Translations under genes and position numbers: made by a program
Shown: piece after piece, positions 1,821 through 34,000 of the stretch
How the letters are laid out: each line of letters opens with the position of its first letter
Numbering within the stretch: position 1 is the stretch's first letter
Notes under the pieces: model-generated
What the model saw: the letters and a program-made list of their open reading frames with translations, nothing else
Databases searched by the model: none
Told to the model about the DNA's origin: nothing
From: Candidatus Stackebrandtia excrementipullorum
GTDB taxonomy: Bacteria; Actinomycetota; Actinomycetes; Mycobacteriales; Micromonosporaceae
Direction of reading: 5' to 3'
Assembly (NCBI GenBank): GCA_019113825.1
Contig: DXGR01000033.1
Coordinates: 1-53,062 of the forward strand
DNA length: 53,062 nucleotides

Positions 1821-2280
1821 CTCGAGGTTCACCGCCGCGTTCTTTTCTTGACCGTCCGGGCCGGCCCGCTGCGGCGGTGGAGGTTGCCGGCTCACACCGA
1901 CATGGCCGACGGTGAGGCCTGCGCCGGGGTTCGGAAACGTCCCGCGACGCTTCGGTAAAGATGCTGCGGCATGCCGCCCCGTGCCGGGCTGCCGCTTCGG
2001 TGGCGATACGGGCCTCGATGCCCGGATCATGGCTTGAGGACGCGTTTTCGGTCGGACGGTCGGTCGTGGTCTTTCTTCATCTGCGCCGACTCGCGCGAGG
2101 CCAAAGGGGCGAAATCGCCCACACCCCAATATGCCGACAGAGCCCTAAACCGCCACGAAATGCCCGCTGACCGGCGCAAACTGTCACTTTCACCAGTCGC
2201 GCCGCCGCCGCGGAGAGGCAAACATGAGGCATATCACTCAACCTCATGCTCCGCCGAGCAGCCACGTCAGCGAGGCTCCC
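1821..2280. other. Gene-free interval before the transporter
   Basis: No convincing gene on either strand. Open frames here are short, lack ribosome binding sites and show no recognisable domain. The last ~60 nt hold two possible starts for the transporter (ATG 2224 after GGAGAGG, ATG 2281 after GCGAGG). Its promoter presumably lies here, but I cannot pick out a clear -10/-35. Confidence 0.5.
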
Positions 2281-3603
2281 ATGACGCAAAAAGAACAGCC
2301 CACCAAAAGTGCGTTGCGACGTGTAGTCGCCGCATCCATCATCGGTTCCACGCTTGAGTGGTACGACTTCTTCCTGTATGCGACGGCGTCGGCTCTTGTG
2401 CTTGGACCGGTTTTCTTCCCCACCACCGACCCCGCGATGGGGACGTTGTTGTCGTTCGCGACGTTCGGCGTCGGGTTCGCCGCACGGCCGATCGGTTCGG
2501 TCATCTTCGGCAACATCGGTGACCGATACGGTCGTCGGCCCGCGCTGGTCGCCACATTGATCCTGATGGGTATCAGTACCGCCCTGATCGGTCTGGTTCC
2601 CGGATACGCGACACTCGGCATCGCCGCGCCGATCCTGCTCGTCCTCCTGCGCCTGCTCCAAGGTCTGGGCGCCGGTGCCGAACTGGCCGGTGCAACGATC
2701 TTCGCCGCCGAGTACGCCCCACCGCACCGCCGTGGCCTCTTCGGTTCCATCGCCACGATCGGCACGTACTCCGGTACGGTCCTCTCCTCCGCGATCTTCG
2801 CGCTGTTCGCGATGATGCCGGAAGAGGCGTTCCTCAGCTGGGGTTGGCGTATTCCGTTCCTGCTGAGCGTTTTCGTCATCATCGTCGGCATCTACATTCG
2901 TATGCGCCTGGACGAGACTCCCGAGTTCAAGGAAGCCGAACGTACCGAGCGCACCAGTAAGACCCCGCTTTTGGACATGTTCCGTTACGAGTGGCGCAGT
3001 GTCCTGCTGGTCATCGGCATCGTCGCGGGTGCCTTCACCGCGACCTACGCCTACCAGACCTACTCGCTGTCGTACATGGCCACCGAGCTGGGCATCACCG
3101 GCGCGACGGGAACCCTCGCGGTCGCGGTCGCCGCGTTCATCGCGATGTTCGTCGTTCCGTTGATGGGTGCGTTGTCCGACCGAGTGGGTCGACGCCCGAT
3201 CCTTATCGCAGGCTGTTCGATTTCAGCGCTGTTCGCGTTCCCGTTCTTCATGTTGATCAACACGGGCAACGACGGGTTGATCATTCTGGCCATGATCGGC
3301 GGTATCGGTATCGGTGTACCGACCATCCTGGGTGTACAGGGTGTCCTGCTCAGTGAACTGTTCTCCACAAGTAACCGGTTCACCGGGTTCTCCGTCAGCC
3401 GTGAGCTCGGTTCGATCGTGTTCGCCGGTGCCACCCCGTTTGTCGCCGCGAGCCTGGTGTCCGCCGCCGACGGCCAGTCGTGGCCCGTGTCGTTGTACGT
3501 CATCGGGGCCTGTCTGATCACGCTGATCACCGGCATCGTCATGAAGGAGCCGGCCCCCGCCGGCAGCCAGAAGGCGATGCCTCAGACACCGGTGAACAAC
3601 TGA
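2281..3603 (+). CDS. MFS transporter, metabolite:H+ symporter (MHS) type
   Basis: A 440-residue, 12-helix permease. The N-terminus ALRRVVAASIIGSTLEWYDF is the MHS signature (ProP, ShiA, KgtP, CitA and tricarballylate permease TcuC group). GDRYGRRP in the loop 2-3 region and SDRVGRRP in the loop 8-9 region are the conserved MFS motifs. Known MHS substrates are organic acids and betaines taken up with protons. ATG 2281 gives the usual short N-terminal arm. ATG 2224, in frame and with a stronger ribosome binding site, would add 19 residues. It ends 29 nt before an acyl-CoA ligase, so the likely job is uptake of the acid that the downstream enzymes activate. The substrate cannot be read from sequence. 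Confidence 0.88.
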   Translation: MTQKEQPTKSALRRVVAASIIGSTLEWYDFFLYATASALVLGPVFFPTTDPAMGTLLSFATFGVGFAARPIGSVIFGNIGDRYGRRPALVATLILMGISTALIGLVPGYATLGIAAPILLVLLRLLQGLGAGAELAGATIFAAEYAPPHRRGLFGSIATIGTYSGTVLSSAIFALFAMMPEEAFLSWGWRIPFLLSVFVIIVGIYIRMRLDETPEFKEAERTERTSKTPLLDMFRYEWRSVLLVIGIVAGAFTATYAYQTYSLSYMATELGITGATGTLAVAVAAFIAMFVVPLMGALSDRVGRRPILIAGCSISALFAFPFFMLINTGNDGLIILAMIGGIGIGVPTILGVQGVLLSELFSTSNRFTGFSVSRELGSIVFAGATPFVAASLVSAADGQSWPVSLYVIGACLITLITGIVMKEPAPAGSQKAMPQTPVNN

Positions 3604-3632
3604 CAAACCACCTCTTGCGACAGGACCCCGCC

Positions 3633-5207
3633 ATGGCATTTCGCGCCACCGACCTACCCGAGCGACTTCACGACGACGAAACTCTGCTGCTGCCGACGTT
3701 GCTGAGGCGACGCGCCGAAGCCGACCCGGACCGGGTGTTCCTACAGAACACCGACGGGACGGAGTTGACCTACGGTCAACTCGACGACCGGGTACGGCGC
3801 TGGATGTCGGAGTTGGCGTCAGCGGGCGTGTCGTCCGGAGACCGTGTCGCCACCCTCTTGCCGCCGTCGTTCGACGCGGTGGCGGTGTGGATGGCGACAG
3901 CGAGGCTCGGGGCGATCGAGACGCCGATGAACACCGCTCTGCGGGGCGAGTTTCTCGCTCACGTGCTGCGCGACTGCGAGCCGCGCTGCATCGTGACGGT
4001 GAGCAGGTTCGCCGACGCGCTCGACGACCAGGACGTGACCTGTCGCGTCCTGGTGGTCGACGGTGAGGATTCGCATGCGAGAAACGGCTTCTCCGTGCCG
4101 TCGCTGACGACGGTTCACGACGGCACGGAGGCCGTCCTACGTCCCCACGACGTGGCCACGATGGTCTACACGTCCGGCACCAGTGGACGCTCCAAAGGGG
4201 TTGTCGTGCCGTGGGCACAGGAGTACGCGACGGCGCGCTGGCTCATGCCGCTGGACGACCGGGAGGGCGACGTCTGGTACGGCCCGTGGGCGATGCACCA
4301 CGTGTCCGGCAAGGTCGGCCTGTACGGTTCGGCGTTGCTGGACGGTCGCCTCGTCATCCGCGACGGATTCAGCACCTCGAACTTCTGGACCGATGTGCGT
4401 CGCTTCGGTGTCACCTCGACCATGATCGTGGCATCGACGGTCACGTTCCTCACTCAACAGCCGCCGTCCGACGCCGACCACGACCACACGCTGCGCAACG
4501 TGTGTGCCGCGCCGATGCCGAGCGACCCGGCCGAGTTCGCGAAACGATTCGGGGTTCGACTGTCGACGTTGTTCAACATGACCGAGACCGCTTCCCCGAT
4601 CGTCACCGGTTGGGACGACTTCCCCGCAGGCTCGTGTGGGCGGTTGCGGCCGAACGTGGAGGCCCGAATCGTCGACGACGACGGCAACGACGTCGAGCCC
4701 GGTCACATCGGCGAACTGCTGCTGAGGTCGACGGTGCCGCACGAGATCATGGCCGGTTACTGGCGGGCGCCGGAGACGACCGTGGAGGCGTGGCGGGACC
4801 TGTGGTTCCACACCGGTGACGCCGCCAAACGCGACGCCGACGGGAACTATTTCTTCGTTGACCGGCTCAAGGACACGATCCGGCGCGGTGGCGAAAACAT
4901 CTCGTCGGTCGAGCTTGAGGAAGCGGTCAACCGGCATCCGCTCGTGAAAGAGTCGGCAGCGGTCGGTATGGCGACCGCATGGGCGGACGTCGACGTGAAA
5001 CTGTTCATTGTGCCGATGGCCGGTTTCGAGGCCGCCGAGTTGGCCGATTACCTGGATCGGCACCTTCCCAGGTACATGCGTCCGACCGCGATATCGGTGG
5101 TGGACGAACTCCCGAAAACCCACACCGCCCGCATCAAAAAGGCCCAGTTGAGGGCGTTGAACGATGAACCGGTGTGGGTGCGACCCAAACGAAAGGACAC
5201 TAAGTGA
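3633..5207 (+). CDS. Acyl-CoA ligase (AMP-forming), CaiC-like
   Basis: A 524-residue ANL-superfamily enzyme that should convert a carboxylic acid, ATP and CoA to acyl-CoA via an acyl-adenylate. Visible motifs are the P-loop YTSGTSGRSKGVV, MTET of the A5 region, HTGD, the hinge DRLKDTIRRGGENIS and a C-terminal Lys-bearing HTARIKKAQL. The overall pattern (FWTDVRRFGVT, LFNMTETASP) is closest to crotonobetaine/carnitine-CoA ligase CaiC and its relatives. The start at ATG 3633 follows CAGGACC. Its last 4 nt overlap the next gene (GTGA), implying translational coupling to the citryl-CoA lyase-like protein. The true substrate is unknown. Confidence 0.85.
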   Translation: MAFRATDLPERLHDDETLLLPTLLRRRAEADPDRVFLQNTDGTELTYGQLDDRVRRWMSELASAGVSSGDRVATLLPPSFDAVAVWMATARLGAIETPMNTALRGEFLAHVLRDCEPRCIVTVSRFADALDDQDVTCRVLVVDGEDSHARNGFSVPSLTTVHDGTEAVLRPHDVATMVYTSGTSGRSKGVVVPWAQEYATARWLMPLDDREGDVWYGPWAMHHVSGKVGLYGSALLDGRLVIRDGFSTSNFWTDVRRFGVTSTMIVASTVTFLTQQPPSDADHDHTLRNVCAAPMPSDPAEFAKRFGVRLSTLFNMTETASPIVTGWDDFPAGSCGRLRPNVEARIVDDDGNDVEPGHIGELLLRSTVPHEIMAGYWRAPETTVEAWRDLWFHTGDAAKRDADGNYFFVDRLKDTIRRGGENISSVELEEAVNRHPLVKESAAVGMATAWADVDVKLFIVPMAGFEAAELADYLDRHLPRYMRPTAISVVDELPKTHTARIKKAQLRALNDEPVWVRPKRKDTK

Positions 5208-5962
5208 CCCACCAGACGATGGGTGAGGCGACCCGCGACGCGGTGACGGTGCGGGGACACGACCTGACCGGTGACCTGATCGGTCGCATCGGCTTCACCG
5301 ACATGGTGCTGTTGGAGTTGACCGGCACGTTGCACGACGACGCCGCGAAAACGGTGTTGGACGCCGTCCTGGTGGCGTTGACCGAACACGGGCTGACCCC
5401 GACCGCCGTCGTAGCGCGACTGACGGACCTGGGTGCGCCGGGCGCGATGCAGTCGGCGGTCGCGGCGGGCCTGTTGGGGGCCGGGGACCGTTTCCTGGGT
5501 GCGCTCGACGGGTGCGCCCGGCTGTTGCAGGAATGGCCGGACGACGTCGACGACACCGAGCACGCGGCGACGCTGGTGGCGCGCATGCGTGCCGACGGTC
5601 GGCGCGTCCCCGGATTGGGGCATCCGACCCATACCGACGGCGACCCTCGGACACCGGCCCTGTACCGGGTGGCCGACGCCGCGGGCCAGGCCACGACCGC
5701 GCGGGACCGACTCGAGATGGTCCGTGCGGAGGTGGAACGCACCACCGGACGGTCGCTGCCGGTGAACGTGGACGGTGCAGCAGCGGTGTTGCTGACCGAG
5801 CTGGGTCTGCCGTGGCAGGTGTGCCGCGGGGTGGCTCTCGTGGCACGTAGCGCCGGCCTTGTGGGGCACCTGTTGGACGAACAGCGACGCCCCACGGCCG
5901 CCGCGATCTGGGCATCGGCCGAACAGACCGCCCCGTATCAGCCGCCTGACGTGCCAAAATAG
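5204..5962 (+). CDS. Short citrate-synthase-fold protein, citryl-CoA lyase-like
   Basis: A 252-residue protein covering only the C-terminal catalytic half of citrate synthase, the size of stand-alone citryl-CoA lyases. It keeps PGLGHP (H140, equivalent to citrate synthase H320) and NVDGA (D190, equivalent to D375). The third catalytic His is absent: where citrate synthases have GPLHGG it reads GDRFLG. That pattern fits a lyase cleaving a citryl-CoA-type thioester to acetyl-CoA and a 2-oxoacid rather than a synthase. The GTG start overlaps the upstream ligase stop by 4 nt. With an acyl-CoA ligase in front and crotonases behind, it plausibly performs the carbon-carbon cleavage of the pathway. 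Substrate is inferred only. Confidence 0.75.
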   Translation: MTHQTMGEATRDAVTVRGHDLTGDLIGRIGFTDMVLLELTGTLHDDAAKTVLDAVLVALTEHGLTPTAVVARLTDLGAPGAMQSAVAAGLLGAGDRFLGALDGCARLLQEWPDDVDDTEHAATLVARMRADGRRVPGLGHPTHTDGDPRTPALYRVADAAGQATTARDRLEMVRAEVERTTGRSLPVNVDGAAAVLLTELGLPWQVCRGVALVARSAGLVGHLLDEQRRPTAAAIWASAEQTAPYQPPDVPK

Positions 5963-5989
5963 AGATCACGACGACGGGGCGGAGGCGCC

Positions 5990-6613
5990 ATGACCGACAT
6001 CCTGGTGGTGGACGATCACGAGATCGTGCGTGAAGGCCTCAGCGCGTCGCTGTCCGGCCCGACCACGAACGTGGCGGCCGCGGTCGGTCGAGGTGACGAA
6101 GCGCTGGCGATGTTGGCCGAACGTCCCGTGGATGTCGCCGTCGTGGACCTGCGGCTACCCGACATGTCGGGACACGACCTGATCAGGCGTCTCAAGAAAC
6201 ACCATCCCGATCTGCGCATCATCGTGTTGAGCACCTATTTGAGCGAGGAGTCGGTGCGTCAGGCGCGGGAGGCCGGCGCCGACGACTACGTCGCGAAGTC
6301 GGCCGGTATGGCCGAACTGCGGGCATGTCTGGAGCGGGTGGTCGCGGGCGGTTCATCGGCCGAAACGCCCGCGCAACTGGTGCGACGGCAGGGCGGCGGC
6401 GACACGCTCCGTTTGACTCCGCAGCAGGAGAAGGTCCTCGTGTTGGCGGCGTCGGGCGCGACCGACCGGGAGATCGCCACAACGTTGTTCCTGTCGGAGT
6501 CGACGGTGCGTTTCCATCTGCAACGGTTGAAGGTGCTGTTGGGGGCGAGGTCGAAGACGCAGGTCATCGCCGAGGCGTTTCGACGTGAACTGATCAGGCC
6601 GGAACCGCTGTGA
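5990..6613 (+). CDS. LuxR/NarL-family response regulator
   Basis: A 207-residue two-domain regulator. The receiver domain (~1-120) has the acidic pair D8/D9, phospho-acceptor D53 in VVDLRLPDMSG, the conserved Thr/Ser in VLSTY and the switch Lys in VAKSA. The LuxR-type HTH (~140-200) has LTPQQEKVL and STVRFHLQRL. The ATG at 5990 follows GGCGGAGG. It starts 27 nt after the lyase gene, and its stop overlaps the GTG start of the sensor kinase by 4 nt, so the pair is made together. It sits inside a catabolic operon, so it probably activates the locus in response to the imported acid or its CoA ester. DNA target unknown. Confidence 0.92.
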   Translation: MTDILVVDDHEIVREGLSASLSGPTTNVAAAVGRGDEALAMLAERPVDVAVVDLRLPDMSGHDLIRRLKKHHPDLRIIVLSTYLSEESVRQAREAGADDYVAKSAGMAELRACLERVVAGGSSAETPAQLVRRQGGGDTLRLTPQQEKVLVLAASGATDREIATTLFLSESTVRFHLQRLKVLLGARSKTQVIAEAFRRELIRPEPL

Positions 6614-8571
6614 CCGCCGGGGCGCAGCATCGTGTGGTCGCCGATTCCGACCTTGATCCGCTGTGCCACATGGTGCGTCGGTTCCTGGACACCGACGCCG
6701 TCGTCATCGCCCTGTGGGGCGAGGAGGACGACACCGTCTCGGTCGGTGCCGTCGGTGTCGGACACGCCGAGGCGGGTGGGCTGGCCACGCGTTTCCATCC
6801 CGACCAGGCCGCGTCGTCGGCGGCCTCCCCGGCCGTTACCGACCCCATCACTGTTGACCGGCCGTCTACGCGGTCGTTGATCGGACGCATCGGGTTCGCG
6901 TCGCTGGTACGGTCGCCGCTCACGCTGCGCGGCCGCGCCGAAGGTCTCCTGTTCGTGTTGTCACGCACGGACCCGGGCGAAGACGGCCACGATCTGCGGC
7001 TTGTTCACGCTCTCGTGCGAAGCTGCGAATCGGCCTTGGAGTTCGGGCGTGACACCGCCTCGGCGACGACACTGCCCGAGGTGGACTCGCTGGCCCTGCG
7101 TGCGTCGTCGTTTCCCACACTCATCCCGGCGATCCGCAACGTCGTTTCCGAGGCGGTCGGAGCGGTGTCCGTGGGACTGTCGATACAGGACGAAGAGTCG
7201 GGTCTGCTGCTGACCGCCGACGGGTCGTTCGGGCTGCCGCGTGAGGTGACCTCACGGTATTTCATCGACCCGAACGATCTTCACAGCAACGCGGCGCGCG
7301 TGTACGAGACGTTGCGGCCGTTCGTCAGCAACCACGTCATCGGCGACCCGGCCGTTCTACAGAGCTATCCCATCGCCTTCGGCATCGAGTCCATGATCGC
7401 GCTGCCCTTGAGCGTGTCCGGTCGTCCCATCGGGGTTCTCATGGTCGCCAACAAACCCGGCGGGTTCGCTGCCGGCGACGTCGACAGGGCGACGACCCTG
7501 ACCCCGCGTATCGCGATCGCCGTGGAGTTGGCGAAGCTCGGTGAGGCCGGCCGTTTCGAGCTCGTCGCCGACCATGTCCTCTCCGATCTGGGGATCGCCA
7601 CCGTCGACCCGATTCTGGACGTGAACCGGTTCGAACCGATCCTTCGGTCGTTGGCTCGGATCGTGCAGGCCGACCACCTCGCGATCTTTCACTCATCCGA
7701 CACGCTCATCGAGATCGGACCGGTGGCGGAGGCGCCGCAGTTCACCGTAGAGAAGCACTGTGGAGTGTTCCAGGGGCGACCGTTGACGTTGCGGGTGACG
7801 CGGGAGTTCGGTCGCACGTTCTCCCGTGGCGAGCGTCGCCTGGTGCACGAGGCGGCGCGCTTGCTGGCCGAAGGTCTGGCCCGCACGACCGCCGTACGGC
7901 AGGAGACCGAGCTGGCCCAGCACCGGGAACGGCAACGCATCGCCGACGACCTCCACGACGACGTCTCACAACTGTTGTTCTCGGCCCAGATGACGCTCGA
8001 CGCGTACACGGCCGAAGAGGGCCCCGCCGGGGACGCCGCGCGTAAGGCGTCGGACCTTGTGGGGCGCGCCGAAGCCGCGCTCCGTGACGCGATTTTCGTC
8101 CTGAACGAGTCGCAACGAAGCCTATCGGACGCGTTGGGTGAAGTCGTGGCCGAACTCGAGGCGAACTGGGACATGGACATCACCCTGCACCAGGATCTTG
8201 CAGCCGACCCCCTCGTTCCGGCCGACATCGGGACCGTCCTGACCCGCGCCGCACGCGAAACCCTCGTCAACGTCGCCAAACACGCACACGTTCACCGCGC
8301 CGAGGTCACGACGCGGTTGTCGCCCGACCACGGCCACATCGAGCTACGCGTCGTCGACGACGGTGTGGGCACCGGTGCGGACACCTCGACCACCGGCGGC
8401 CACGGCCTGCGATCGCTGAGCCGCCGCGTCGCCGAATTCGGCGGCCGCGCGACCGTCCAGGGCCGCGCCGGCGCCGGTACAACGGTCACCGTGACCGTAC
8501 CTCTGCCGACTCCACACGACCGACTATCGGTTTCGGCAGTTGAAACCTCCACGCCTGATCACGACAATTGA
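6610..8571 (+). CDS. GAF-domain histidine kinase (NarX/DevS-like HisKA_3 class)
   Basis: A 653-residue cytoplasmic sensor kinase with no membrane segment. Residues ~170-310 look like a GAF domain, and a second GAF-like stretch covers ~330-430. HisKA_3 follows with RIADDLHDDVSQ; H449 is the expected phosphorylation site. The HATPase_c domain (~520-640) has ETLVNVAKHA (N box), VVDDGVGTG (G1) and GGHGLRSLSRRV (G2). The GTG start overlaps the regulator stop by 4 nt. With no periplasmic domain, it should sense an intracellular cue, plausibly the transported acid, its CoA ester or redox/gas status through GAF. The GAF sequence shows no haem ligand I can assign. Confidence 0.9.
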   Translation: MTAGAQHRVVADSDLDPLCHMVRRFLDTDAVVIALWGEEDDTVSVGAVGVGHAEAGGLATRFHPDQAASSAASPAVTDPITVDRPSTRSLIGRIGFASLVRSPLTLRGRAEGLLFVLSRTDPGEDGHDLRLVHALVRSCESALEFGRDTASATTLPEVDSLALRASSFPTLIPAIRNVVSEAVGAVSVGLSIQDEESGLLLTADGSFGLPREVTSRYFIDPNDLHSNAARVYETLRPFVSNHVIGDPAVLQSYPIAFGIESMIALPLSVSGRPIGVLMVANKPGGFAAGDVDRATTLTPRIAIAVELAKLGEAGRFELVADHVLSDLGIATVDPILDVNRFEPILRSLARIVQADHLAIFHSSDTLIEIGPVAEAPQFTVEKHCGVFQGRPLTLRVTREFGRTFSRGERRLVHEAARLLAEGLARTTAVRQETELAQHRERQRIADDLHDDVSQLLFSAQMTLDAYTAEEGPAGDAARKASDLVGRAEAALRDAIFVLNESQRSLSDALGEVVAELEANWDMDITLHQDLAADPLVPADIGTVLTRAARETLVNVAKHAHVHRAEVTTRLSPDHGHIELRVVDDGVGTGADTSTTGGHGLRSLSRRVAEFGGRATVQGRAGAGTTVTVTVPLPTPHDRLSVSAVETSTPDHDN

Positions 8572-8606
8572 CCTACGCGTTCACCTGGGCTTTCGAAAGG
8601 ATGGCC

Positions 8607-9428
8607 ATGGCCAACGACAACGGTCACGAAGAACTCGACGGCGCTGTGGACCTGGGCACGACGACGGTCACGATGAACGTCGACGAGCACGTCGCCACCA
8701 TCACGTTGAACCGCCCGGAACGGCTCAACGCGTTGACCTTCGAACTGCTCAACGGCCTCGAACGGGCGTGGCGTATCGCCGCCGAACGCGACGACATCCG
8801 GGCCGTGGTGTTCACCGGGGCCGGACGGGCGTTCTGCGCCGGTGCCGACATCGGCGAGTACCTGTCCAGTCCTTCCAGTGTGGGACGTCTTCTGATACCG
8901 GACGTCGACCAACGGCCGGACCGGGGCCTGGAATTGCGCAAGCCCGTGGTCGCCGCCGTCGACGGACCGTGCCTGGGCGGCGGAATGACGTTGCTGATGG
9001 CCACAGACATCCGGTTCGCATCCCCTCGGACACGGTTCTCCATGCCGGAGACCGGCTGGGGAATTCTTGCCAGTTTCGGTGGTACACAACGACTCCTGCG
9101 GCAACTCCCGCACAGTGTCGCCATGTCGATGCTGCTGGGCGGAGAAGAGTTGGACGCGGAACAGGCACACCGGTGGGGCCTCGTGTCACACCTGGTCGAC
9201 GAGAACGTCGTCGAGGCCGCGACCGCCTACGCGCACCGGATAGCCGCCCGTGCGCCACTGGCCACGCAGGCGACCAAGGAACTCGCCTTGCGTTCCTACG
9301 ACATGACCGTGGCCGATGGAGTCCGCATGGAGGACATCATGGTCCGGCTCCTTCAAGACACCGACGACGCCGCCGAGGGCATTCAGGCCTGGCGGGAGAA
9401 ACGCACACCTCGATACACCGGGACGTAA
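8607..9428 (+). CDS. Enoyl-CoA hydratase/isomerase (crotonase) family protein 1
   Basis: A 273-residue crotonase. The oxyanion-hole segments GAGRAFCAGADIGEY and DGPCLGGGMTLL are intact. Hydratases use two glutamates 20 residues apart (rat E144 and E164). Here the second is present (E148 in MPETG), but the first position is T128 in GGGMTLLM. The enzyme therefore may not be a standard hydratase; crotonases with one acid include isomerases, dehalogenases, decarboxylases and C-C hydrolases. I chose ATG 8607 because GAAAGG at 8595-8600 is correctly spaced from it; in-frame ATG 8601 is possible. The next acyl-CoA ligase follows 2 nt after its stop. Confidence 0.85.
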   Translation: MANDNGHEELDGAVDLGTTTVTMNVDEHVATITLNRPERLNALTFELLNGLERAWRIAAERDDIRAVVFTGAGRAFCAGADIGEYLSSPSSVGRLLIPDVDQRPDRGLELRKPVVAAVDGPCLGGGMTLLMATDIRFASPRTRFSMPETGWGILASFGGTQRLLRQLPHSVAMSMLLGGEELDAEQAHRWGLVSHLVDENVVEAATAYAHRIAARAPLATQATKELALRSYDMTVADGVRMEDIMVRLLQDTDDAAEGIQAWREKRTPRYTGT

Positions 9429-9430
9429 CC

Positions 9431-11119
9431 ATGAGTCGACTGTCCAAGGCCGTGACGCCTCCGCTCCCGAGGGAGCCTCTCGATGCCGCCATGAGCCGGT
9501 TGGACATCCCCGGTGAGTACGCATCCGGGGAAGTGGATCGTGCACGCGCCCTCGGTCTTGCACCGCTTCCTCGGATGACGTACCACAGTCTTCTCCAATT
9601 GGCGCGGCACCGCTTCGGTGACCACCACGTCCTGTTCGAGTTTCCCGACTCCGATCACCGCTTGAGCGTGGGTGACCTGGCCGGTGCCGCCGATCGGTTC
9701 GCCCGCGCACTGCTGGCGGCAGGTTTCCAGCACGGCGACACCCTGTGCGTCTGGTCGCCGCCTGCACCGTTGTGGCCGGTAGCCATGTTCGGGGCCGCGC
9801 GGATCGGTGTTCGGGTGTGCGGAGTCAACACGCGTTACCGGCGCGAGGAACTGCGACATCTCATGCAGGTGTGTCGGCCACGCGCCGTCATCGTGGCGAC
9901 CGGGTTCGGCGGGGTCGACGCACTCGAGTTGATCACCGACGCCGTCGAGGGGCGATGTCGGGTCGTGGCGACTCTGGTCGGTGAATGCTCCGACGACGCC
10001 GCCGCCTTCCTGTCCGCAGGGCGCAGCGTCACCGACGGTCGGTTGGCCGCCGCCACCGCAAAGGTCTCATACGACGACGACGCGTTGATCCAGTTCACCT
10101 CCGGCAGCACCGGGGCTCCCAAGGGCGTCCGGATCAGCCAGTCCGCATCGGTCGCGGCCGGACACTACGGCGCCGAATGCGTGGGACTGGACCCGAGCGA
10201 CCGCCTGTACAGTCCCCTGCCGTTCTTCCACATCGGAGGAACGATCTCGACGGCTCTCGCCGCCGTCGCCGCCGGCTTCCGTGTCGTGGCGCCTCAACGA
10301 TTCGACGCGGCGACGGCACTGCGATCCATCGCGAAGGACTGCACCGCCTTCCACGGGCACGGTGCACTGTGGCGGATACTCCTCGACGAGCACCGCAAGC
10401 AACCCGTGTCGTTGCCGCACCTACGCAAAGGCTGGGCCAGTGGCGACGTCGACTTCATGCGAGCCCTACGGGACGAGCTGGACGTTGACGACCTGGTCAA
10501 CATGTACGGCTCCAGCGAAGCCGGGACCATCGCATGCACACTCCCGCGCGATCCCGACGCCATCCGCCTCGGAAGCCTCGGTCACCCCACACCGGGTACG
10601 AGAATCAGCATCCGCGACGAAGACGGCAACGAAGTACCCGACGGCGACATCGGTGAACTTCACCTGACGGGAGTCATGGGCATGACCGGATACCTGGGCG
10701 AAAAACCACGTGGCGAGGCCTGGATGGCGACAGGCGACCTCGTCAGACGCCACAACGACGTCCTCGAATACCGGGGCCGCACAGACGATCGACTCAAACC
10801 AGGAGGGGAGAACGTCTCGGTCGCCGAAGTCGAGGCGTTCATCGCCCGTGACCCGGGCGTGGAGGAGGTCGTGGTGGTCGGTGTCCCCGACGAACGGTTC
10901 GGTGAAGTTCCCGCAGCCGTCGTCCGGCCCGCCCTACCGTGTGTCAGCGAAGTCTCCGTCATCGCGCGATGTCGCTCCGACATCGCCGGTTTCAAGGTTC
11001 CCCGGTACGTCCGGATCGTGGAGAAACTGCCCACCCTTGACACCGGAAAAGTAGACCGCCGCCGGGTCCGCACCGAACTGCTGGAACACCTGCGTGAAGA
11101 GAGAGGCGTCAACCTGTGA
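9431..11119 (+). CDS. Second acyl-CoA ligase (AMP-forming)
   Basis: A 562-residue ANL ligase. Motifs: FTSGSTGAPKGVR (P-loop), MYGSSEAG (A5), ATGDLV, the hinge YRGRTDDRLKPGGENVS and the catalytic Lys in DTGKVDRRRV. It is ~40 residues longer at the N-terminus than the first ligase in this locus and differs from it throughout, so the two probably activate different acids or successive intermediates. It starts 2 nt after the first crotonase stop, and its own stop overlaps the second crotonase by 4 nt (GTGA), placing it firmly in the same transcript. Relatives include fatty-acid, cyclohexanecarboxylate and aromatic acid ligases. I cannot narrow the substrate. Confidence 0.85.
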   Translation: MSRLSKAVTPPLPREPLDAAMSRLDIPGEYASGEVDRARALGLAPLPRMTYHSLLQLARHRFGDHHVLFEFPDSDHRLSVGDLAGAADRFARALLAAGFQHGDTLCVWSPPAPLWPVAMFGAARIGVRVCGVNTRYRREELRHLMQVCRPRAVIVATGFGGVDALELITDAVEGRCRVVATLVGECSDDAAAFLSAGRSVTDGRLAAATAKVSYDDDALIQFTSGSTGAPKGVRISQSASVAAGHYGAECVGLDPSDRLYSPLPFFHIGGTISTALAAVAAGFRVVAPQRFDAATALRSIAKDCTAFHGHGALWRILLDEHRKQPVSLPHLRKGWASGDVDFMRALRDELDVDDLVNMYGSSEAGTIACTLPRDPDAIRLGSLGHPTPGTRISIRDEDGNEVPDGDIGELHLTGVMGMTGYLGEKPRGEAWMATGDLVRRHNDVLEYRGRTDDRLKPGGENVSVAEVEAFIARDPGVEEVVVVGVPDERFGEVPAAVVRPALPCVSEVSVIARCRSDIAGFKVPRYVRIVEKLPTLDTGKVDRRRVRTELLEHLREERGVNL

Positions 11120-11799
11120 CGGTCGACCTGTCCACGACCGGAGGCGTCGCGACTCTGACCCTTGACCGGCTCGAGAAACGCAACGCTCTCAACCTCGAGT
11201 TCGCCACCGACATCGCCCGGGCGCTTGACGAGGCGGCCGCATCCGCGTCGATTCTCGTCCTACGGTCGAGCGGTCCGGTGTTCAGCGCCGGAGTCGACCT
11301 GTCCGAGCCGATGAGGCTCGACGCGTCCTCGCCGGAACTCGTCATCGCCGACGCGCTACTCGGCACCCCCCTGTTCGTCATCACGGTGGTCGAAGGGCCG
11401 GTCCTCGCCGGTGGGCTCATCATCGCCGCGGTAAGCCCGATTGTCGTGGCCTCCCGGGACGCCCGCTTCTGGCTACCGGAACGAAAGATCGGTGTGTTCC
11501 CCGGCCGCGTACTTGCGTTTCTGGAGCAGGTGTTTCCACCTCGGCAGGCGTTCTGGTACGGCGTGACCGAACAACACATCACCGCCGACGAGGCCGTCAC
11601 CCTGGGCCTTGCCAGCGTGGCCACCACCGACGTCGACGCCGAGGTGACACGCCTGACCGGTGAACTCCGTGACGCCGATCCGGCGTTTCTGCGCGCCGCC
11701 CGCGACGGCTGGCGTACCCGGTTCACCACGCGCGAGCACCACACACGCCGTCGGGTACTCGACGATCTTTTGACCGCCAACGTCGCCGACCGCGGCTAA
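11116..11799 (+). CDS. Crotonase family protein 2 (short)
   Basis: A 227-residue crotonase-fold protein, shorter than the usual ~260 because the C-terminal helices are reduced. The first oxyanion-hole segment is SSGPVFSAGVDLSEP and the second EGPVLAGGL. At the two catalytic glutamate positions it has I102 and E122 (LPERKIG), so like its neighbour it lacks the first glutamate. The GTG start overlaps the ligase stop by 4 nt. It is the last gene of the locus; a weak hairpin and a convergent SDR gene follow. It could be an isomerase, a lyase or a non-catalytic partner. Confidence 0.8.
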   Translation: MTVDLSTTGGVATLTLDRLEKRNALNLEFATDIARALDEAAASASILVLRSSGPVFSAGVDLSEPMRLDASSPELVIADALLGTPLFVITVVEGPVLAGGLIIAAVSPIVVASRDARFWLPERKIGVFPGRVLAFLEQVFPPRQAFWYGVTEQHITADEAVTLGLASVATTDVDAEVTRLTGELRDADPAFLRAARDGWRTRFTTREHHTRRRVLDDLLTANVADRG

Positions 11800-32874: not shown

Positions 32875-34000
32875 GGGCCTGGCGGGGGTTGTGGTCGACG
32901 AGACCGCGATCTCCTATGTGAACCAGGAAACGAACTCGCTGACCTATCGCGGTTATCCGGTTCAACAGTTGACGAAACGATGCTCGTTCGAAGAGGTCGC
33001 CTACCTGATCCTGCACGGTGAACTGCCCGACGCCTCGCAACTTGAACGCTTCACCGCCGCCGAACGTGCCGGTCGTGGACTGCCGCGCAGCCTTACCGAC
33101 ACCCTGCGTCGCCTACCCGAATCCAGTCATCCCATGGACGCGCTGCGCACCGCGGTCAGCCACATCGGTGCCGAGGATCCTCTGGAGGACAGCAACCGGC
33201 CCAAACACAACGTCGCCAAGGCGGTGAGTCTGTTCGCGAAGCTTCCGACCGTGGTCGCCGCCGAACAGCGCCGCCGAAACGGGCTGGAGCCGATCGCGCC
33301 GGACCCGGCGCGCGGCTTCGCGGAGAACTTCCTGTACATGTGCGGCCACACGTCGCCGGCCACAGAGATCGTCGACGCCTTCGAGACCTCGCTGATCCTC
33401 TACGCCGAACACGGTTTCAACGCCTCCACGTTCACCGCACGAGTCGTCACGTCGACTCTGTCCGACTTCTACAGTTCCGTCATCGCCGCAATCGGAGCCC
33501 TCAAAGGCCCACTCCATGGTGGAGCCAACGAAGCGGTTATGCACATGATGGAGGAGATCGGCGACCCGTCCCGGGTGTCGGATTGGCTCGACGAGGCACT
33601 GGCGAAACGCCGCGTCATCATGGGTTTTGGCCATCGTGTCTACAAACACGGTGACTCGCGGGTGCCCATCATGAAGCAGGCGCTGTGGGAGGTTGCCGGC
33701 CACCACCGCGACGGCGCACGGCTAACGGAGATCTACCGCATTCTGGCCGACCGCATGCTGACGGCCAAAAACCTCCATCCGAACCTCGACTATCCAGCCG
33801 GGCCCGCTTACCACCTGATGGGCCTGGACATCCCGATCTTCACACCTGTCTTCGTGATGTCACGGATCACCGGCTGGTCTGCGCACATCATCGAGCAGCT
33901 GGAAGCCAACACGCTGATCCGTCCTTTGAGTCATTACAGCGGCGTCGCCGAACGCTCCATACCCGTGATGACTCGCACCCACAGGAAGGCAACGACATGA
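32861..34000 (+). CDS. prpC: 2-methylcitrate synthase
   Basis: A 379-residue citrate-synthase-family enzyme joining propionyl-CoA and oxaloacetate. The three catalytic residues are present: His in GPLHGGANE, His in GFGHRVYKHGD and Asp in NLDYPAG. Its compact size and GLAGVVVDETAISYVNQ start match actinobacterial PrpC rather than the larger GltA. ATG 32861 follows GGAG and lies inside the prpB 3' end. The stop overlaps the aldehyde dehydrogenase start by 4 nt (ATGA). Unlike the short citrate-synthase-like protein at 5204-5962, it is full length. Confidence 0.94.
   Translation: MTMHKGLAGVVVDETAISYVNQETNSLTYRGYPVQQLTKRCSFEEVAYLILHGELPDASQLERFTAAERAGRGLPRSLTDTLRRLPESSHPMDALRTAVSHIGAEDPLEDSNRPKHNVAKAVSLFAKLPTVVAAEQRRRNGLEPIAPDPARGFAENFLYMCGHTSPATEIVDAFETSLILYAEHGFNASTFTARVVTSTLSDFYSSVIAAIGALKGPLHGGANEAVMHMMEEIGDPSRVSDWLDEALAKRRVIMGFGHRVYKHGDSRVPIMKQALWEVAGHHRDGARLTEIYRILADRMLTAKNLHPNLDYPAGPAYHLMGLDIPIFTPVFVMSRITGWSAHIIEQLEANTLIRPLSHYSGVAERSIPVMTRTHRKATT

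What the first reader, a model, noticed from the sequence alone, without database searches (positions are those of the whole stretch)
2281..11799. Possible undescribed acid-degradation pathway: MHS transporter, two acyl-CoA ligases, citryl-CoA lyase-like protein and two odd crotonases with their own two-component system
The gene order suggests uptake of an organic acid, activation to a CoA ester, rearrangement or hydration by crotonases and carbon-carbon cleavage by a lyase that keeps only the two citrate-synthase residues expected of a citryl-CoA lyase. MHS relatives include citrate and tricarballylate permeases. One hypothesis is a tricarboxylate or alkyl-succinate/itaconate-like acid converted to a citryl-CoA-type ester and split to acetyl-CoA plus a 2-oxoacid. 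The CaiC-like first ligase also allows a betaine. I know of no characterised pathway with this exact set.
Basis: inference. Interest (0 to 1): 0.75.

Follow-up and report, generated by a model that had tools for sequence, protein, structure and literature searches.

The report
Acid-cleaving operon with altered CoA ligase
A compact eight-gene bacterial operon probably imports an organic acid, attaches coenzyme A to it and splits it, and it pairs a ligase and a lyase whose altered active-site residues suggest unusual chemistry that can be tested directly.

Summary
The operon is real: eight tightly packed plus-strand genes at 2281-11799 (MHS transporter, ligase LIG1, citryl-CoA-lyase-like CCL, response regulator, histidine kinase, crotonase CRO1, ligase LIG2, crotonase CRO2). 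One congener carries all eight in order; 76% DNA identity spans 2177-11753 and stops at both ends, and all genes are under purifying selection. It is rare: close CCLs in 2 of 397 order genomes, own included.
The acid-degradation idea is partly supported. CCL keeps all three citrate-synthase catalytic residues (H62, H140, D190). The Asp is missing in 51 of 57 family sequences, and the window clade is nested among Asp-less relatives.
New: AMP ligases within 1 kb of a CCL carry Arg for the A10 catalytic Lys (10 of 11 readable); of 15 others with a residue there, 12 have Lys and none Arg; in a control 39 of 42 have Lys. LIG1 has Arg, LIG2 Lys. Each crotonase keeps one of two catalytic Glu.
Best reading: uptake, CoA activation, isomerisation or hydration, cleavage to acetyl-CoA plus a 2-oxoacid. 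Substrate unproven; transporter scores do not favour tricarboxylates; carnitine is unlikely.

The parts
2177..2280 (+). Leader conserved with the congener's operon; similarity to that genome begins at 2177. Possible promoter/operator region.
   Evidence: blastn boundary; MAFFT of window, L035 and L036 leaders. Function inferred.
2281..3603 (+). MHS-family metabolite/H+ symporter (440 aa)
   Evidence: TIGR00883 413.9 bits (cut-off 443.45); 91% identical in L035, dN/dS 0.07
3633..5207 (+). LIG1: ANL-type AMP-forming acyl-CoA ligase (524 aa) with Arg500 (codon 5130-5132) at the A10 catalytic-Lys site
5204..5962 (+). CCL: citryl-CoA-lyase-like short citrate synthase homologue (252 aa, GTG start); H62, H140, D190, R149, R215
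   Evidence: NF004868 287.6 bits over cut-off 193; 6hxp E 6.7e-28; residues
5990..6613 (+). NarL-type response regulator (207 aa), receiver Asp53
6610..8571 (+). Sensor histidine kinase (653 aa), GAF domains plus HisKA_3/HATPase_c, His449
8607..9428 (+). CRO1: crotonase; Thr128 at the first catalytic Glu site, Glu148 at the second; start codon uncertain (8568-8673)
9431..11119 (+). LIG2: ANL-type acyl-CoA ligase (562 aa) with the normal A10 Lys540
11116..11799 (+). CRO2: short divergent crotonase (227 aa); Ile102 at the first catalytic Glu site, Glu122 at the second
   Evidence: found in 2 of 354 family genomes at E 1e-30, own included

Best explanation
An inducible catabolic operon for one organic acid. 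The MHS symporter imports it (inferred from family). LIG1 and/or LIG2 make its CoA ester with ATP (inferred from family). CRO1 and CRO2, single-Glu crotonases, shift the double bond and/or add water to give a 3-hydroxy-3-carboxyacyl-CoA, i.e. a citryl- or citramalyl-CoA-type tertiary alcohol (inferred). CCL cleaves this C-C bond to acetyl-CoA plus a 2-oxoacid by citrate-synthase-type chemistry (catalytic residues shown, activity inferred). There is no oxidoreductase in the operon, so the substrate should already be unsaturated or hydroxylated; an itaconate-, citramalate- or aconitate-like acid is my best guess. The GAF histidine kinase and NarL-type regulator sense the acid or its CoA ester and switch the operon on (inferred). 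LIG1 and CCL, with overlapping genes, look like the functional core pair.
For: Conserved compact operon as one block in different surroundings, under purifying selection. CCL assigned over cut-off, nearest solved structure is a citryl-CoA lyase, catalytic triad complete. CCL relatives lie beside a CoA-activating gene in 45 of 52 loci versus 1 of 40 controls, and in 17 of 24 annotated plasmid regions within 2.5 kb by my count of the tables. LIG1, CCL and CRO1 homologues also stand together in Pseudonocardia sp. CNS-139 behind a different (SSF-family) transporter, marking them as the core. The genome has no CitE-type lyase over cut-off. An Asp-type CCL sits with TctCBA and a two-component system in Ruegeria.
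Against: No substrate or activity is shown. The whole set was found in only two genomes; three other genomes of the genus lack close CCL and CRO2. MHS model scores favour ShiA/ProP-like over tricarboxylate carriers. LIG1 lacks the Lys described as the key adenylation residue (PMC8388817 passages). The Arg matching the citrate-synthase residue that holds the distal carboxylate (R229; role recalled) is Gln in L035. Two crotonases and two ligases exceed what a simple itaconate- or aconitate-type route needs. A second copy in the congener has CCL broken over frames and lacks RR, LIG2 and CRO2, yet keeps MHS, LIG1, HK and CRO1, so those four may have another role.
Confidence: 0.55

Rival explanations
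1. LIG1 is not an ordinary ligase. The A10 Lys-to-Arg change weakens adenylation, and LIG1 works with CCL in another way (thioester-forming half reaction, product channelling, or escape from lysine acetylation), while LIG2 does the ATP-dependent activation.
For: Arg in 10 of 11 readable CCL-adjacent ligases; Lys in 39 of 42 control domains (L174 counted as Lys by eye); three changes forced on the tree; LIG2 has Lys540.
Against: In L116-L118, L125, L053 and L054 the Arg-type ligase is the only ligase found in the stretch, so there it presumably has to activate the acid; the other ANL motifs shown are intact. One Arg ligase (L203) has no CCL near, and one CCL-adjacent ligase (L076) has Lys.
Confidence: 0.25
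2. Betaine/carnitine-type route: LIG1 activates crotonobetaine, CRO1 hydrates it, CCL splits carnitinyl-CoA into acetyl-CoA and betaine aldehyde.
For: LIG1's best NCBIfam model (PRK06155, 408.2 bits, below cut-off 722) was formerly labelled carnitine-CoA ligase (recalled); ProP-like MHS score; PDB chains named carnitinyl-CoA dehydratase (3r9s, 3r0o) are among CRO1's relatives; a LIG1 relative in Rhodococcus is annotated putative crotonobetaine/carnitine-CoA ligase.
Against: CaiC model 233.8 bits against cut-off 651; no carnitine model among CRO1's 25 best; no aldehyde dehydrogenase in the operon; carboxylate-site Arg149 and Arg215 are invariant in 57 of 57 relatives.
Confidence: 0.08
3. Aromatic or fatty acid side-chain degradation: ligase, hydratase and retro-aldol cleavage of a 3-hydroxyacyl-CoA by CCL.
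For: LIG1 and LIG2 nearest solved structures are FadD5, FadD13, oxalate- and benzoate-CoA ligases at low similarity; many CCL relatives lie with ring-cleavage dioxygenases and hydroxylases.
Against: No oxygenase, acyl-CoA dehydrogenase or thiolase in this operon; the CCLs aligned from those loci lack the Asp that the window CCL has.
Confidence: 0.17
4. CCL runs in the condensing direction and the operon builds rather than degrades a compound.
For: Citrate-synthase chemistry is reversible; crotonases and ligases also occur in biosynthetic clusters (general knowledge, no call).
Against: A carrier of a mostly uptake family and a sensor system in the same transcription unit, no tailoring genes among the eight.
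Confidence: 0.08

Closest known systems
Stand-alone citryl-CoA lyase of Hydrogenobacter thermophilus (PDB 6hxp; organism name recalled)
   Same: Short citrate-synthase homologue, His/His/Asp positions and NVDGA motif shared; E 6.7e-28
   Different: 31% identity; Phe97 where 6hxp has His; partner is an AMP-forming ligase, not an ATP-grasp citryl-CoA synthetase (that partner recalled)
Itaconate degradation cluster (CoA-transferase, itaconyl-CoA hydratase, citramalyl-CoA lyase; PMC12290011, abstract and outline seen)
   Same: Logic: activate a branched dicarboxylate, hydrate, cleave to acetyl-CoA and pyruvate
   Different: Ligases instead of a CoA-transferase, crotonases instead of a MaoC-type hydratase, CS-type instead of CitE-type lyase (the two known classes recalled)
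ATP-citrate lyase (citrate synthase homology module)
   Same: NVDG motif, and Phe at the same site in the bacterial alpha-subunit (GPRFGGA / GDRFLGA)
   Different: No ATP-grasp half; the role of the Asp in ACLY itself is disputed (PMC10115795, passages)
Ruegeria sp. THAF33 CCL cluster (L212)
   Same: Two-component system, carrier, CoA-activating enzyme and Asp-type CCL
   Different: TctCBA carrier and CoA-transferase; a bifunctional hydratase/phosphate acetyltransferase instead of separate crotonases; CCL 30% identical
IclR - amidohydrolase - CaiB - CCL - extradiol dioxygenase operon of the same bacterial family
   Same: A CCL family member next to a CoA-activating enzyme
   Different: CoA-transferase and ring-cleavage enzyme; its CCL has NGAG, lacking the Asp

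Membership tests
Citryl-CoA lyase (NCBIfam NF004868, CS-type) | Profile score over curated cut-off | tested here: met
   287.6 bits, cut-off 193
Citryl-CoA lyase (NCBIfam NF004868, CS-type) | Citrate-synthase catalytic His, His, Asp | tested here: met
   H62, H140, D190 aligned to 6hxp and 6qcl; catalytic roles recalled
Citryl-CoA lyase (NCBIfam NF004868, CS-type) | His in the GxxHGGA substrate loop as in 6hxp | tested here: not met
   Phe97; the ATP-citrate lyase alpha chain also has Phe there
[quoted passage not shown]
   Needs enzyme assay
ANL acyl-CoA ligase (LIG1) | AMP-binding and C-terminal domains, P-loop | tested here: met
ANL acyl-CoA ligase (LIG1) | A10 catalytic Lys | tested here: not met
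   Arg500
ANL acyl-CoA ligase (LIG2) | A10 catalytic Lys | tested here: met
   Lys540
Two-Glu enoyl-CoA hydratase (CRO1, CRO2) | Both catalytic Glu | tested here: not met
   Thr128/Glu148 and Ile102/Glu122
Itaconate degradation pathway | CitE-type citramalyl-CoA lyase | tested here: not met
   No PF03328 match over cut-off in the own genome (99.4% complete), best 20.8 bits, cut-off 25
Itaconate degradation pathway | Itaconate CoA-transferase | tested here: not met
   The operon has AMP-binding ligases only; the rest of the genome was not searched for CoA-transferases
Carnitine (cai) pathway | CaiC-type ligase over cut-off | tested here: not met
   233.8 bits, cut-off 651
ATP-citrate lyase / citryl-CoA synthetase pair | ATP-grasp, SucCD-like synthetase half | tested here: not met
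   No such domain in the eight proteins

The most novel reading that the evidence does not exclude
A recurring ligase-lyase pair: an ANL enzyme whose A10 Lys has become Arg, encoded directly beside a citrate-synthase-type lyase, forms a two-protein functional analogue of ATP-citrate lyase for branched hydroxy-acids. The Lys-to-Arg change arose more than once because the pair needs it (altered adenylation, direct hand-over of the acyl-CoA, or immunity to lysine acetylation). In the window the lyase has also regained the catalytic Asp that most of its sampled family lost.
Probability: 0.25. Interest if true: 0.75.

Novelty: new variant of a known kind. Interest (0 to 1): 0.55.

Why it matters
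Proteins labelled 'citryl-CoA lyase' are common (145 of 354 genomes of this bacterial family have a match at E 1e-20), yet the listings of our paper searches showed no characterised member of this wider group. Most sampled members lack the catalytic Asp, so the label is doubtful, and the window gives a rare member where canonical chemistry is plausible and testable. The Arg-for-Lys signature in CCL-adjacent ligases gives a concrete, cheap test of how this group works and could help assign function to many unexplained clusters.

Tried and rejected
Search for more full operons: close CCL (E 1e-57) in 2 of 397 (order, own included) and 1 of 394 (class, own only) genomes; in 396 phylum genomes 14 have a match at E 1e-45, the best after the own being 1.2e-58, 47% identical, in another setting. 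CRO2 in 2 of 354, own included. No match for CRO2 in plasmids at E 1e-15. Four LIG1 relatives without CCL (L097-L100) lie in varied clusters and gave no substrate clue. The LIG2 and MHS plasmid searches were uninformative. A search of 90 genomes around G1054 for more ligase-CCL pairs gave only loci already held (5 of 90 with a match).

Structure prediction of CCL from a single sequence failed (mean pLDDT 42.1); no fold search was made with it. Promoter and terminator scans gave chance-level counts. Paper searches gave no characterised relative in their listings; one search found one paper naming isohexenylglutaconyl-CoA hydratase, not opened.

Rejected: transporter as evidence for tricarboxylates; carnitine as main reading; the idea that Phe97 speaks against citryl-CoA (an ATP-citrate lyase chain also has Phe).

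Rows dropped: the 57 aligned CCLs include the frame-broken L036 row (Ser at the Asp column; without it 50 of 56 lack Asp); L005 is not among them. For the CCL tree L036 and three short or wrong-frame citrate-synthase pieces were removed and 71 sequences thinned to 46; its bootstrap had not settled. For the A10 count 35 ligase ORFs were found. No residue at the column: three L005 ORFs, L081, two L092 pieces, L082, L136. The duplicate L085 of the window was left out. Three rows more than 1 kb from a CCL (L087, two of L088) show Phe, Phe and Glu there, probably misaligned (the two Phe rows read 'GAAKV' just before). L036 is counted as CCL-adjacent although its CCL is broken. L081, CCL-adjacent, ends before the Lys. 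L005's LIG1 shows Arg ('TPTQRVQK') only in a second frame of a draft assembly; it is counted in the 11-of-12 Fisher table but not in the 10 of 11. The control holds 12 domains of this genome and 30 of the 92 matches (those given loci), and includes LIG1 itself, one other CCL-adjacent ligase and one unexplained Arg (L203). In one search the seven loci without an activator are L039 (its CCL was not classed, though a CaiB stands there), L047, L055, L062, L063, L067 and L120.
Full report
WHAT IS THERE. The window (contig C6 of a 4.17-Mb, 99.4%-complete genome; an actinomycete near Pseudonocardia, inferred) carries eight + strand genes between 2281 and 11799, with overlaps of 4 bp or gaps of at most 35 bp: MHS symporter, LIG1, CCL, NarL-type regulator, GAF histidine kinase, CRO1, LIG2, CRO2 (domains; family models). 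A peptidase M23 gene lies upstream and an SDR and a catalase on the other strand downstream, so the operon ends are clear. The only named close relative is Pseudonocardia sp. CNS-139; the genomes of the search tool are unnamed.

CONSERVATION. A second genome of the same genus (G346, L035) has all eight genes in the same order. One blastn alignment, 76% identical, spans window 2177-11753; the flanks do not align with the 6.5 kb and 3.4 kb held of L035 apart from one 35-bp piece. The unit therefore sits in different surroundings in the two genomes. dN/dS is 0.07 (MHS) to 0.28 (CRO2), rough because synonymous sites are near saturation; the L035 kinase ends about 16 residues earlier. Three further genomes of the genus have no close CCL or CRO2. 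G346 holds a second, reduced copy (L036): MHS, LIG1, HK and CRO1 are intact, CCL is split over frames, and RR, LIG2 and CRO2 are missing. CNS-139 (L005) has CCL, LIG1 and CRO1 homologues behind an SSF-family transporter gene, plus another ligase and a crotonase-like stretch; its CCL and LIG1 are frame-broken in that draft. Close CCLs are otherwise absent from what was sampled: 2 of 397 order and 1 of 394 class genomes at E 1e-57, own genome included; CRO2 in 2 of 354 family genomes, own included.

CCL. It scores 287.6 bits with NCBIfam 'citryl-CoA lyase' NF004868 (cut-off 193), and its nearest solved structure is the citryl-CoA lyase 6hxp. In 57 family sequences His62, His140, His143, Asp147, Arg149, Arg215 and Glu226 are invariant. 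The column of the citrate-synthase catalytic Asp is Ala 32, Thr 13, Asp 6, Ser 6 (recounted); none of 12 further phylum members has Asp. Asp is found in the window, L035 and a distant subfamily (L057, L058, L060, L061, L212-L214) that also keeps the loop His; CNS-139 reads INVDG too. On the tree the window pair is nested in a 40-row group (96/94 support) otherwise without Asp, and three changes of the label are forced, citrate synthase and 6hxp rows included (bootstrap not settled). So Asp was regained, or lost several times around it. Sequences are partly redundant. In ATP-citrate lyase the role of this Asp is disputed (PMC10115795, passages).

CONTEXT OF THE FAMILY. A CoA-activating gene (CaiB, ligase or CoA-transferase) lies within 2.5 kb of CCL in 45 of 52 loci (40 of this bacterial family, 12 of the phylum), against 1 of 40 stretches taken 1 Mb or more away in 18 of the family genomes. 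Many of the 52 belong to one operon type (IclR, amidohydrolase, CaiB, CCL, extradiol dioxygenase), so they are not independent, and the gene classes rest on BLAST to a small reference set of mine. A hydratase-type gene was within 2.5 kb in only 4 of 52, so the ligase/transferase link is general but the hydratase link is not. Of 24 annotated plasmid regions (of 123 records, chosen by me from best and spread lists; a 25th, L216, has no annotation there), 17 have an activating gene within 2.5 kb by my reading. In Ruegeria an Asp-type CCL follows a two-component system, TctCBA and a CoA-transferase and precedes acetate kinase.

LIGASES. LIG1 has Arg500 where ANL ligases have the A10 Lys, described as the key catalytic residue of adenylation and highly conserved (PMC8388817, passages). 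Ligases within 1 kb of a CCL with a readable site: 10 Arg, 1 Lys (L076). Of 15 ligases farther away or without CCL that have a residue in that column, 12 have Lys, none Arg, and 3 other letters that I take as misaligned. Control domains from this genome and part of four others: Lys in 39 of 42 (one, L174, read by eye), Arg only in LIG1, the CCL-adjacent ligase of G1054, and L203, which has no CCL within about 7 kb. Three changes are forced on the ligase tree of 23 rows; LIG1's nearest relative there, L097, has Lys. Fisher tests give 2e-9, and 1e-5 for the smaller comparison, without correction for relatedness. LIG2 has Lys540.

CROTONASES. Against crotonase 5xzd, CRO1 has Thr128 for the first Glu and keeps Glu148; Thr and Glu are the same in L035, L036 and L005. 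CRO2 has Ile102 and Glu122; its second-best solved relative, 'putative isohexenylglutaconyl-CoA hydratase' 4zu2, also lacks the first Glu in the printed alignment. Single-Glu crotonases include double-bond isomerases (recalled), so both isomerisation and hydration to a tertiary alcohol remain open.

MECHANISM. Taken together: uptake, CoA activation, isomerisation/hydration, CS-type cleavage to acetyl-CoA and a 2-oxoacid. Shown: gene order, conservation, residues, family context. Inferred: every reaction and the substrate. The genome has no CitE-type lyase over cut-off (best 20.8 bits, cut-off 25), which leaves CCL as the candidate for that role. Against a tricarboxylate: MHS scores (ShiA 326.5, ProP 310.7, TcuC 242.9 bits, all below cut-off), and Gln in place of Arg229 in L035.

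COMPARISON. It works like the itaconate route (PMC12290011, abstract) or a split ATP-citrate lyase, but belongs to neither: different activating enzyme, hydratase and lyase class. No paper in the listings of our searches describes the set; the library holds open-licence papers only.

VERDICT. A real, rare, selected operon; the acid-degradation class is likely, the substrate unknown. The unexpected part is the paired active-site changes in ligase and lyase.

Noticed in passing
L037-L046, L048-L052, L059, L064-L066, L068-L074, L121, L123, L124; also plasmids L089, L094: A widely conserved operon IclR - amidohydrolase - CaiB CoA-transferase - 'citryl-CoA lyase' without the catalytic Asp - extradiol dioxygenase; looks like an aromatic ring-cleavage route with a CoA step, unknown to me (some of these loci miss one or two of the genes).
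   Followed up: partly
L212:1-9306 (Ruegeria sp. THAF33 plasmid): Two-component system, TctCBA, CoA-transferase, Asp-type CCL, acetate kinase and a phosphate acetyltransferase fusion: looks like a citrate-lyase substitute.
   Followed up: partly
L087 and L088 (Roseibium, Pseudosulfitobacter plasmids): CCL inside a leucine/terpene-like set: ligase, biotin-dependent carboxylase, HMG-CoA lyase, SDR, acyl-CoA dehydrogenase, MaoC.
   Followed up: no
L036:5992-12652: Reduced second copy of the operon in the congener's genome: CCL broken over frames, RR, LIG2 and CRO2 absent, histidine kinase without its regulator.
   Followed up: partly
L203 / L211 (G335 C1 near 2716770): An AMP ligase with Arg at the A10 site but no CCL found nearby; the one exception among the controls.
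   Followed up: partly
window 33359-33907: A further citrate synthase homologue lies in the same window (L004, 437-aa frame, 25% identical to CCL).
   Followed up: no
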